DNA from: Psilocybe azurescens | Lineage: Eukaryota; Basidiomycota; Agaricomycetes; Agaricales; Agrocybaceae | Assembly: GCA_023853785.1 (NCBI GenBank) | Contig: JAJIRX010000880.1 | Location: 248,001-312,000 of the forward strand | Direction of reading: 5' to 3' | Length of the DNA: 64,000 bases | The notes under the pieces: generated by a model | Databases searched by the model: none | What the model was told of the DNA's origin: nothing | Seen by the model: the letters and a program-made list of their open reading frames with translations, nothing else | Part shown: positions 17,101 through 20,354 of the stretch, in pieces | Layout of the letters: each line of letters starts with the position of its first letter | Numbering within the stretch: the stretch's first letter is position 1 | Translations under genes and position numbers: made by a program

Positions 17101-18068
17101 GAGATCGTCTCAATGCCCCCTTGGCGGCCCTTGAAAATCTTATGTAGCGCAATGGCTATCCACAAATGGACATCATGATTCCTAATTAGTGCATTATCCT
17201 ACGTTGATAAGCAAGTGCATACTACACACCAAGAGGATGTTCACGAGATGTTCATGCCGTTGGAGATCATTTCTGCAATGTCGACAAGCTCGATCCGAGA
17301 TTGAAGATCAGTCAGTGTGTCTCCTTTGCGAGTGGAGGATGTGGGGTAGCAATTATGTAACTGTATTGCATATTGTATGTCCACTCTTCTGCTCATGGTT
17401 ATATTGTATCATAATAATCTACTACTATCGTCTAGTCGAGCTCGTCAAGCTCGTCAAAATCGCGCTCATCAAAGTCAAACTCGAACTCTCGCCCGAAGAT
17501 ATCCTCGTCTTCATATTCGCGTCCGTATAGTTCGGAGTCTTCGAAGGCGTCGCGCTCGACGAGGTCGTCGATTTCGCGGCGGTCGGATTGTGTAGCGTAG
17601 GAGACGGCGGCGTGTGCGGCGTGGCGCGCGACAGAGTGTGCGACTGGGTGGTTGCGGTTGTGGCTGTGGGCCTCGTGCTTGACGTGGGTCCTAAAGGTAG
17701 TGGGTGGTCAGTTTTAGTTTCTGAGGTGGATAGGTAGAGAGGGCAGGGGAGAGGAGAGGAGGGTAATGGATAAAGTTGTGGTACGTACATTCCGTTCTTC
17801 ATGAAGCTCCCGAACCCAGGGCTGCGCTCGTCGATCTCTTCGATGTAGCGCTCGAAGAGCTCGTCGAGGTCGAGGTCGGCGCTGCGCGCGAGGAGCTCGT
17901 CTTCTTCATCTTCGCGGCGGATGACGCTGGTCGAGGCACATAAAGCAATTAGCACAGCTGTAACATTGCTTAGGAGGGGTTGGGCTACTACTCACACAGA
18001 GGCGACTTTCTTGATGCCGTGCCACATCTTCTTGAAGAAGCGGCCGATCTTGCTGCGCTCGGAGAGTT
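17101..18068. repeat. segmental duplication, partner of 13518-14107
   Basis: The 3' flank and gene region are shared with 13518-14107. This copy is the complete one, and the partner has lost about 400 bp. Confidence 0.85.
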
Positions 18069-18455
18069 CCTGGACGTCGATGTCCCGAGCGTCGAGCTCC
18101 TCTACGACTCTGCTGAACAGTTCATCAGTCTCGCGGGCAAAGACGATGCCGGTGTCGGTGTTGGCGAGATCGCGTCCGAAGAAGAGAGATTGTTCGGATA
18201 GGTCGCGGCTGTGGAGGGAAGGGGTGGAATGGATTGGGAGGGAGAGAGGGGAGGGAGGGGAAGTGATGGAATAGAATGGGTTGGCAGTTAGCGTTAGAGA
18301 TGGAAATGGCAGAGGAGAGATAGAACAGGTTAGAATAGAAATAGATGTTGGGATGCTGTTGCGTACCTGTCAAGCTCCTCCCAGCTAGACGCAAACACAG
18401 AGATAGGGGCGGCAACGAGGGCGGCGACGACGAGGGTAGATGCGAATTTAACCAT
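17432..18455 (-). CDS. small secreted protein with cationic amphipathic segment and acidic tail
   Basis: Four exons on the minus strand: 18455-18367, 18208-17996, 17926-17789 and 17690-17432, with all phases consistent, 232 residues. A signal peptide starts MVKFASTLVVAALVAAP. An acidic region with ARE/GRD motifs follows (LFFGRDLAN, FARETDELFSR). Then comes a cationic segment at the end of exon 2 (ERSKIGRFFKKMWHGIKKVA). Next are an acidic stretch (EDEEDELLARSADLDLDELF), a His-rich part (HVKHEAHSHNRNH, ARHAAHAAV) and a tail alternating Arg-Glu/Arg-Asp with acidic runs (ELYGREYEDEDIFGREFEF). A cationic helix flanked by acidic pro-like segments is reminiscent of antimicrobial peptide precursors; that is inference. 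Paralogues lie at 10867 and 19422, with a relic at 13844. Confidence 0.82.
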
Positions 18456-18585
18456 TATGATTTAATTTATTATTCGGTTGTGTGGGTTTTATTGATTGGA
18501 CTGCGATCAACACAGAAGTGGCGGCTTGTGTAGGTGCGCGAGAAGAGGGGAGACCAGCTGAGGAAACGGAGTCTAGCGGAGGGAG

Positions 18586-18593
18586 TTTATATA
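18586..18593 (-). promoter_or_regulatory. TATA box of the 17432-18455 gene
   Basis: On the minus strand TATATAAA lies about 130 bp upstream of the ATG at 18455. Confidence 0.5.
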
Positions 18594-19421
18594 GCCATGC
18601 CCTTGATGATGGGCGCTGCTGGTTCCTGATAGCATGTGGGCAGGAATGAACAGTTGACACCGTCAGAGTCCGACGGCACAGCGTTCTATTTTTGGCTGCG
18701 CTAATCTTGGTATCTGGGAAACACAATTATGAGTCTGAATTATGATTGTGCCCAATACCTAATAATAAGCGCCTGAGATTGTCGATAAGCGGTGGGGAAT
18801 GGAAAGAATCTGTGTGGTACAATAGAATACTCTAGCCTACTATAAAGCAAGTTCTTAAACATCTTTCAAAGTATTTTCTGAGAGTCCCGAATGGTGAATA
18901 AAAGGAATCCAGAACCGATGGTGAGGACCTCACTGCCGCAAGCCGAATGGCGATCCAATCTTCCAAAACATCATCAAGACATTGATGAAACATCAACTTG
19001 ACAGAAAAGCCATGTCATTCACGACCGGCATGTCCGGATCTGATATATACTTCTTTCATTCCGTTTTGGCGTTATCAAATGGTTATCGTTTCGAGCACAG
19101 CCATGCACGTTGCACAACGATGGACCTGTATGCATACCGTTACCAGGCTGAGGTGTTGTTAGTGTTGCTAATGAAAAATGAGCCGTCTTCGTGGGACTCG
19201 AACTCGGATGGACTCTCGAAGGAACTGTAAAGCGTCACTCTGCTTAGCGAAGTCATATAGAAGTACAAGATACTGATATGACCGGTAATGGGTATTTTAT
19301 TATACTCCGAGATATAATTTCCTTCTGCTCAATGGTGTTGTTGATGTGGTAAGTACATGCGGAACGGGTACTCAGACATCAAGTTGGACTTAGACCAGTG
19401 ATATGCCTGATATCTGCTAGC
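18594..19421. other. intergenic, no supported gene
   Basis: Between the two secreted-protein paralogues. No ORF or repeat is recognised. A tRNA-like stretch near 19195 was examined and rejected. Confidence 0.4.
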
Positions 19422-20354
19422 TTAGTCAAGCTCATCAAAGTCAAAGTCGCGCTGGAAGAGGTCCTCAGCATCGTCGAAGTCGCGTTCGTAGAGCTCGGAT
19501 GCAGTGTCGGTGAAATCGCGCTCGACAAGGTCAAGGTCGAGGTCAAGATCGCGTTCCGAGAGGATGTCGTCAAAGTCGCGTTCCGAGAGGTATTCAAAGA
19601 CTTCGCGGGTGTCGAGTGCGGAGCTGTCGGCGGTTGAGGGAGCGGCAGCGTCGCCGGCTTTGTGTGCGTGCGCGAGGTCTTTAACGTGCGTCCTGGAAGA
19701 AATATGTATGGGTGAGATTAAAATAAAGGTGCCAGATGAAAGGGCGACTTACATTCCGTTCTTCATGAAGTGGAGGAATCCGGGGCTGCGCTCTTCGATG
19801 TCTTGAATGTAGCGCTCGAAGAGTTCGTCGAGCTCTCGTGCTTCGAGTTCCTCCCTCGCGGGAGAACATCTCTTCTTCACCGTCTTCACGTTTGAGGACA
19901 CTATATTATAACACGAATGGAGCATTGATGATCAGCAAATATGATATTGGAGCCAAATGGAGTACTACTCACACAGAGGCGACCTTTTGATTCCGTGCCA
20001 GATCTTCTTGAAGAAGTTGCCGATTTTGCGACCAATTTTGGAGCGTTCTGAGAGATCTGCATACTCGACACCGCGGGATTCGAGATCCTCCGCAATTCTA
20101 GAGAACAGCTCATCGACCTCCCGGGCGTACACGGCCTCTGTCTCGGTGAGTTCGCGTCCAAAGATGTCCTGCTCGCTGAGGTCGCGACTATTATTAAAGA
20201 TAGAAGATGAGGTTATGTCTCAGTTCTATCACACAACGACCCCAGGTTGATGTGAGAATTTGACGTACGAGTTGAGATCATCCCAGTTGCCAGATGCAAA
20301 TACGGGGGCGGCAATGAGAGCGGCGAAAAGGAGGGCGGATGCGAATTTGACCAT
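19422..20354 (-). CDS. small secreted protein, acidic-tail family, with frame breaks
   Basis: Paralogue of the 17432 gene with the same exon layout: exon 1 20354-20269 (signal peptide MVKFASALLFAALIAAPVFA) and exon 2 with SRDLSEQDIFGRELTE, FSRIAEDLESRGVEYAD and the cationic ERSKIGRKIGNFFKKIWHGI. The last exon encodes repeated acidic motifs (EYLSERDFDDILSERDL, ELYERDFDDAEDLFQRDF) and stops at 19422-19424. Two one-base differences break the frame against the paralogue. One A is missing in the AAGAAAG equivalent at the end of exon 2 (near 19986), and one G is extra in the exon 3 GAGGGAGG run (near 19858). They offset each other, so both may be base-calling errors. If real, this is a pseudogene. 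Confidence 0.65.

What the first reader, a model, noticed from the sequence alone, without database searches (positions are those of the whole stretch)
17432..20354. Secreted precursors with a conserved cationic amphipathic segment between acidic stretches
Two paralogues and the relic at 13844 keep a segment of the type SKIGRFFKKMWHGIKKVA, with Lys/Arg and aromatic/aliphatic residues alternating at helical spacing, inside an otherwise strongly acidic secreted protein. This segment is the best conserved part of the family. The diverged member at 10867 has a different cationic stretch (RIGAQVGARVGSRVASKV) in the same place. Acidic pro-segments that mask a cationic membrane-active peptide are a known design in animal antimicrobial precursors. 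A fungal family of this layout would be new to me.
Basis: partly seen in the sequence, partly recalled or inferred. Interest (0 to 1): 0.75.

Follow-up and report, generated by a model that had tools for sequence, protein, structure and literature searches.

The report
Mushroom precursors of acid-flanked cationic peptides
Two neighbouring genes of a Psilocybe mushroom, with many relatives in other mushrooms, appear to encode secreted proteins that carry a short, positively charged, membrane-seeking helix between strongly acidic stretches, a layout that suggests a stored peptide of the antimicrobial kind, although its release and activity are untested.

Summary
Genes B (17432-18455, minus) and C (19422-20354, minus) and relic D (about 13844-14104) keep a Lys-rich amphipathic segment inside strongly acidic, apparently secreted proteins; A (10867-11416, plus) is a diverged relative. 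The genome is a Psilocybe close to P. cyanescens. Three searches gave 127 related proteins, 14 Agaricomycete species being named. With A, B and C, all 130 are net acidic, and 103 of 130 hold a cationic amphipathic 18-mer, against 6% of their own shuffles. Other members vary the sequence, keep the character, and may repeat it (seven near-identical copies in one gene of this genome). Acidic parts carry an Arg about every 9 residues. Args that open a cationic stretch are followed by X-Pro in 125 of 250 cases, Args before acidic stretches in about 3%. 95 of 308 acid-free runs end in KR or RR. This fits a polyprotein cut at single and double basic sites. Two low-confidence AlphaFold models show no domain burying the segment. 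Against it: KR/RR cutting alone frees no cationic peptide from B, some relatives lack the segment, charge balance across members fails, no activity is shown. My searches found no description in print. Best reading: precursors of secreted membrane-active peptides (0.55).

The parts
17432..18455 (-). Gene B, 232 aa, four exons 18367-18455, 17996-18208, 17789-17926, 17432-17690; acidic precursor with one Lys-rich amphipathic segment
   Evidence: Splice model open from ATG to stop; 22 database relatives, best E 3.8e-50
18001..18054 (-). Cationic amphipathic segment of B, SKIGRFFKKMWHGIKKVA (net +6, moment 0.74), opened by ER
   Evidence: best conserved mature part over 20 sequences
17914..17919 (-). 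Dibasic RR that ends the B segment, followed by ED; candidate Kex2-type site
   Evidence: Sequence and splice model; dibasic ends are common in the family, 95 of 308 acid-free runs
17576..17823 (-). Second possible cassette of B, ER-SPGFGSFMKNGM / intron / THVKHEAHSHN...SDRR-E, His-rich, opened by R-Ser-Pro and ended by RR
   Evidence: Sequence; weak amphipathicity (net +1, moment 0.37 for its first 23 residues)
19422..20354 (-). Gene C, 239 aa, four exons 20269-20354, 19973-20187, 19753-19900, 19422-19692; a stretch after the helix is frame-changed relative to the family
   Evidence: dN 0.178, dS 1.012 against B over five in-frame blocks
19983..20042 (-). Cationic amphipathic segment of C, SKIGRKIGNFFKKIWHGIKR (best 18-mer net +6, moment 0.85)
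13844..14104 (-). Relic D, copy of the 3' part of B without most of exons 3 and 4 and without the first exon
   Evidence: 94.2% and 89.7% identity to B in two pieces; reading frames
14021..14074 (-). Cationic segment kept in relic D, SKVGRFFKKIWHGIKKVA (net +6, moment 0.76)
10867..11416 (+). Gene A, 143 aa, three exons 10867-10934, 10994-11122, 11182-11416; diverged relative with an Arg/Gly/Lys cationic stretch
   Evidence: 93% identical to P. cyanescens P0112, 78% to P. cubensis P0114; profile match to the B family at 99.0%
11192..11269 (+). Cationic stretch of A, RIGAQVGARVGSRVASKVGRKAAHKA (best 18-mer net +5, moment 0.66)
11315..11320 (+). KR that follows the His/Asn-rich tail of the A cassette; candidate Kex2-type site
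   Evidence: Sequence

Best explanation
B, C and A are secreted precursors. The Lys-rich segment is a peptide cassette that forms an amphipathic helix on a membrane. Acidic modules of about 9 residues, each bounded by Arg, surround it and keep it soluble and inactive on the way out. Proteases of the secretory pathway or cell wall cut after Arg: a Kex2-type cut at the RR or KR that ends many cassettes, and a single-Arg cut (consensus acidic-Leu-x-x-Arg) that opens them; where a cassette starts with X-Pro, a dipeptidyl aminopeptidase may trim it. The freed peptide of about +6 then acts on membranes of microbes or small animals around the mycelium. Shown: the layout, its conservation, its repetition in relatives, and the sequence marks at the ends. 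Inferred: secretion (no signal-peptide predictor was run), cutting, helix on a membrane, inactivity of the precursor, target.
For: 103 of 130 members hold a cationic amphipathic 18-mer, shuffles 6.0%; in 71 clusters of cationic cores not chosen by moment, 24 have permutation p below 0.05 and 65 below 0.5. All 130 are net acidic. Lys sits away from acidic residues (0.57 within four positions, n 1291) and Arg among them (2.85, n 2544). Opening Args are followed by X-Pro in 125 of 250, or 35 of 78 in 50 non-redundant members, against 16 of 571 before acidic stretches and 0 of 78 at each of six shifted positions. Dibasic ends in 95 of 308 acid-free runs, shuffles 1.9%. P4 of opening Args is L, I or V in 92% of 78. 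Multi-copy relatives: seven copies in L001 of this genome, five in P0063. Single-Arg cuts were reported for mushroom KEPs made in Pichia (PMC9769878, section read). Kexin P-domain at three places and a DPPIV-type gene in this genome. Purifying selection between B and C.
Against: No peptide, expression or activity data. KR/RR cutting alone gives no cationic peptide from B, and the single-Arg site ER-SK has an acidic P2, which is not a classical Kex2 site (recalled). 27 of 130 members lack the 18-mer by my cut-offs, among them full-length ones. X-Pro may mark a helix start instead of trimming, and the B segment itself starts with SK, not X-Pro. Some clusters have no amphipathicity (p 0.99 for one). 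Charge balance across members is absent after length correction. AlphaFold confidence is low.
Confidence: 0.55

Rival explanations
1. The peptides are cut out but serve the fungus's own surface, as amphipathic coat or repellent peptides on hyphae, like the Kex2-derived repellents of Ustilago maydis.
For: Amphipathic character with loose sequence constraint also suits surface peptides; a 1996 paper title on small amphipathic peptides affecting aerial hyphae of U. maydis was seen in reference lists, the rest is recalled.
Against: High Lys content and strong acidic flanks are not needed for a coat; some members are single-copy with one short cassette (one search counts 54 of 130 with one cationic run).
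Confidence: 0.15
2. The protein works uncut, as a secreted polyampholyte (for example a matrix, adhesion or condensing protein) in which cationic and acidic parts bind each other or a partner.
For: Arg spacing in acidic parts is regular (median 9, 92% within 6 to 14, shuffles 48%) and 126 of 130 end in Leu-Asp, so the acidic parts and the C-terminus are conserved beyond mere charge; KR/RR cuts do not free the segment in B.
Against: Dibasic ends and X-Pro starts are placed at cassette borders; cassettes are repeated with spacers in relatives.
Confidence: 0.15
3. The cut peptides are signals to other cells of the fungus or to a plant partner, read by a receptor.
For: Kex2 and X-Pro (STE13) marks are those of alpha-pheromone precursors (PMC6339444 passages); members occur in the mycorrhizal genera Laccaria and Hebeloma (lifestyle recalled).
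Against: Receptor ligands usually need a fixed sequence; here charge and amphipathicity stay while sequence varies widely between subfamilies. Within the SKIG subfamily, however, the sequence is well conserved, which is in its favour.
Confidence: 0.1

Closest known systems
KEX2-processed repeat proteins (KEPs) of fungi (PMC6339444, PMC7329392, PMC9769878)
   Same: Secreted precursor, peptide cassettes, basic cut sites, X-Pro after the cut, several copies in some relatives.
   Different: A, B and C have no repeats and only three KR/RR fragments each; borders are mostly single Arg; cassettes are cationic helices between acidic spacers. 28 of 130 members give four or more KR/RR fragments.
Candidalysin / Ece1 of Candida (PMC8787473)
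   Same: Amphipathic helical peptide inside a larger kexin-cut secreted protein.
   Different: No Candida protein was named among the 127 matches; the candidalysin region is flanked by KR on both sides (passages), B has single Arg before and RR after; acidic Arg-spaced flanks are a mark of the present family.
Animal antimicrobial precursors with an anionic propiece (alpha-defensins, frog skin peptides; PMC7073735)
   Same: Cationic peptide joined to acidic pro-part, proposed to limit self-damage (passages).
   Different: No sequence relation was seen or specifically tested; acid lies on both sides and in excess, and does not follow the cationic charge after length correction.
Copsin of Coprinopsis cinerea
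   Same: Kex2-cut secreted antimicrobial peptide of an Agaricomycete (passage).
   Different: Copsin is a disulphide-bonded defensin-like fold (recalled); B has no cysteine.

Membership tests
KEX2-processed repeat protein (KEP) | Four or more fragments after cutting at KR or RR (KK as second choice), three or more repeats (pipeline passage in PMC6339444) | tested here: not met
   A, B and C give 3 KR/RR fragments each and no repeats; 28 of 130 members give 4 or more. KK cutting was not tried.
KEX2-processed repeat protein (KEP) | Signal peptide for secretion | tested here: inconclusive
   A, B and C start with MVKF and a hydrophobic Ala/Val-rich stretch; no predictor was run
KEX2-processed repeat protein (KEP) | Peptides released in the organism | not testable with these tools
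   Needs peptidomics
Candidalysin family | Peptide flanked on both sides by Lys-Arg kexin sites | tested here: not met
   B: single Arg before, RR after
Candidalysin family | Amphipathic, helical peptide | tested here: inconclusive
   Moment 0.74 to 0.85 in B and C; helix over the segment in low-confidence models of two relatives
Candidalysin family | Common descent with Ece1 | not tested
   No direct comparison with Ece1 was made; no Candida name appears among the listed matches
Acid-masked cationic antimicrobial precursor (a design, not one family) | Cationic amphipathic peptide next to an acidic pro-part | tested here: met
Acid-masked cationic antimicrobial precursor (a design, not one family) | Charge of pro-part follows charge of peptide | tested here: not met
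   rho -0.32, p 0.022; after length correction -0.07, p 0.62, n 50
Acid-masked cationic antimicrobial precursor (a design, not one family) | Released peptide kills or inhibits microbes | not testable with these tools
   Needs a bench test
Any Pfam family | Score above the curated cut-off | tested here: not met
   A, B, C: none above cut-off. Of 38 relatives, one each matched two unrelated domains at E up to 0.01 (IcmF-related_N 1.1e-5, CPSase_L_D3 0.0018)

The most novel reading that the evidence does not exclude
A large, undescribed Agaricomycete family of polyproteins in which single arginines with Leu or Ile at P4, not KR/RR, are the general cut sites, so that surveys based on dibasic sites miss most of it; it stores one to several linear cationic amphipathic peptides per protein between acidic spacers and gives mushrooms an arsenal of helical membrane-active peptides comparable to that of frog skin.
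Probability: 0.4. Interest if true: 0.8.

Novelty: new variant of a known kind. Interest (0 to 1): 0.62.

Why it matters
Known mushroom defence peptides are mostly cysteine-rich or cyclic (recalled). A widespread family of linear helical cationic peptides in acidic polyproteins would add a peptide class with dozens of distinct natural cores to test (71 clusters), and would pose a clear question about cutting at single arginines in the mushroom secretory pathway.

Tried and rejected
Solved structures: a 28-residue form of the segment matched one designed coiled coil only (E 0.0011), which I read as composition. Structure-library searches were not run, because both models have low confidence (mean pLDDT 48.6 and 52.1, pTM 0.25 and 0.21). 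Pfam hits were below cut-off or isolated. KR/RR processing alone was rejected as sufficient for B. Charge balance across members was tested and dropped. A RiPP cyclisation partner (UstYa, PF11807) was sought: 28 matches in the genome, none on the window's contig. P. cyanescens P0023 (408 aa, marked low quality by its source) is probably one gene model fused over several neighbours; it was left out of alignments A2 and A4 but is one of the 130 in the counts, as are partial models such as P0010, P0042 to P0045, P0119 and P0124. Ten of the 127 database proteins have E between 0.001 and 1 (P0085 to P0091, P0125 to P0127); I kept them for the shared layout. A2 holds 20 of the 25 sequences then at hand (P0010, P0021, P0022, A and C left out); A4 holds 38 relatives chosen for the SKIG-type layout. 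The first 22 residues were removed before all charge counts.

Full report
What is there. The window is part of contig C758 of a 70 Mb genome. Gene A is 93% identical to a P. cyanescens protein and 78% to one of P. cubensis, so the organism is a Psilocybe near P. cyanescens. B and C lie in tandem on the minus strand, and relic D lies downstream of B. D matches the 3' part of B in two pieces and lacks most of exons 3 and 4 and the first exon. Own-genome searches with exon-2 pieces of C and B found three matches each: B, C and D.

Is it coding and kept. B and C differ by dN 0.178 and dS 1.012 over five in-frame blocks (63.0 synonymous and 234.0 other sites), which points to purifying selection. 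C carries two one-base length differences that cancel, so a short stretch after its helix reads differently from the family; I cannot tell a real change from an assembly error. Many homologues are intronless proteins on contigs of about 1 kb, which suggests transcripts; this is inference. Two relatives on longer contigs (P0043, P0044) read through an insert at the place of intron 3 of B, which agrees with the splice model.

How wide. Three protein searches listed 22, 82 and 45 matches at E up to 1, 127 different proteins, ten of them with E above 0.001; only the best 7997 candidates were scored. The profile of A with two relatives matches the B profile at 99.0% probability.

The cationic segment. 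After removal of the first 22 residues, all 130 proteins (127 plus A, B and C) are net acidic, from -62 to -4. 103 of 130 hold an 18-mer with charge +4 or more, moment 0.40 or more and at most one acidic residue; 100 shuffles of each protein do so in 6.0% on average. To avoid choosing by moment I took acid-free runs (308 in 129 of 130 proteins) and collapsed cores with at least three basic residues to 71 clusters: 24 have a permutation p below 0.05, 56 below 0.25 and 65 below 0.5. Clusters are still related by descent, so the binomial values printed are rough, and some clusters show no amphipathicity. In the SKIG subfamily (20 sequences) the segment has 0.61 mean pairwise identity, the highest of the mature parts. 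Members that lack it exist (P0047, P0053 to P0056).

Repeated cassettes. Some relatives hold several: P0025 three, P0063 five. In this genome, L001 (contig 550) holds seven copies of EPGFGSFIKGI with acidic spacers and single-Arg borders and only one dibasic site; L002 (contig 678) has three related cassettes; and L007 has a member with several A-like cassettes about 13 kb upstream of the window on the same contig. Contig 477 holds a further relative. These members were found only with distant relatives as queries, so my count for the genome is a lower bound.

Marks at the ends. Acid-free runs end in KR or RR in 95 of 308 cases, in shuffles 1.9%; an Arg within the first three residues is only moderately enriched, 151 of 308 against 30%. 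Args that open a cationic stretch are followed by X-Pro in 125 of 250 cases (35 of 78 in 50 non-redundant proteins), against 16 of 571 for Args before acidic stretches; six shifted positions give 0 of 78 each. P4 of the opening Arg is L, I or V in 92% of 78. X-Pro after a Kex2 cut is the STE13 mark of published KEPs (PMC6339444, passages). X-Pro may instead start a helix, and the main segment of B begins with Ser-Lys. Args in acidic parts are spaced at a median of 9 residues (interquartile range 8 to 11), 92% within 6 to 14 against 48% in shuffles.

Processing. By KR/RR alone, B gives three pieces of charge -3, -8 and -20 and no free cationic peptide. A single-Arg cut is needed at ER|SK. Vogt and others reported products that appear to come from cuts after single Arg when Coprinopsis KEPs were made in Pichia, and three KEX2 genes in Coprinopsis; their KEP knockouts showed no phenotype in axenic culture (PMC9769878: abstract, part of the results, section 7 and passages). 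In this genome the kexin P-domain matches at three places and a DPPIV-type gene is present. A monobasic aspartyl protease (yapsin) is another candidate (title in a reference list of PMC2515848).

Structure. Two AlphaFold models of relatives (P0001 with 20 rows, P0030 with 38 rows) have mean pLDDT 48.6 and 52.1 and pTM 0.25 and 0.21. Each has a helix over the segment (residues 81-99 and 81-105) at block means of 56 and 45 in the first and 56, 57 and 41 in the second, and much of the rest is also drawn as helix. The low pTM gives no sign of a compact domain, but the models neither prove nor firmly exclude burial.

Masking. Flanks of 25 residues average -5.9 and -6.0 around runs of +6.1; both are negative in 85 of 97. 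Across 50 members the acidic charge follows the cationic charge weakly (rho -0.32) and not at all once length is removed. The acid is in excess rather than tuned.

In print. Searches for KEP surveys, cationic amphipathic precursors in Agaricomycetes, candidalysin-like peptides in Basidiomycota, helical peptides from mushrooms, Psilocybe peptides, six motifs of the family, and membrane-active small secreted proteins listed no description of this family that I recognised from titles, abstract starts and the passages read. The library holds open-licence papers only, and the supplementary tables of the KEP surveys could not be read, so multi-copy members with RR sites may be listed there without comment.

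Verdict. The layout is real, widespread and non-random. Precursors of secreted membrane-active peptides is the best reading (0.55). Uncut polyampholyte, surface peptide and signal are rivals.

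Noticed in passing
15181-16067 (+): Secreted-looking Pro/Ala-rich protein (three exons) whose C-terminus is ...RPLEKR-YSCDRRDRNCY, a KR site followed by an 11-residue tail framed by Tyr and Cys; it could be a Kex2-released or RiPP-type peptide. No UstYa (PF11807) match lies on this contig.
   Followed up: partly
about 12131-13361 (+): Gene that looks like an alpha/beta-hydrolase (VVIHGLCFSS...GWSLGSGEA), named from recall only; it lies between A and relic D.
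   Followed up: no
35810-35926, 45881-46138 and 55641-55769 (-): Three related minus-strand frames (…GLCQGVSDGEFEQCERDLRARE and the like), about 10 kb apart, found by the Arg-acid scan; perhaps a repeated gene or element.
   Followed up: no
L002 (contig 678) with L003 (contig 78); L005 (contig 506) with L006 (contig 86): Pairs of contigs gave near-equal matches, perhaps two haplotypes or duplicates in the assembly; the 70 Mb size may be inflated by this.
   Followed up: no
C-termini of the family, for example 17432-17446 (-): 126 of 130 members end in Leu-Asp, mostly DELD (56) or DDLD (53). The reason is unknown; it may be a sorting or protease-protection signal.
   Followed up: no
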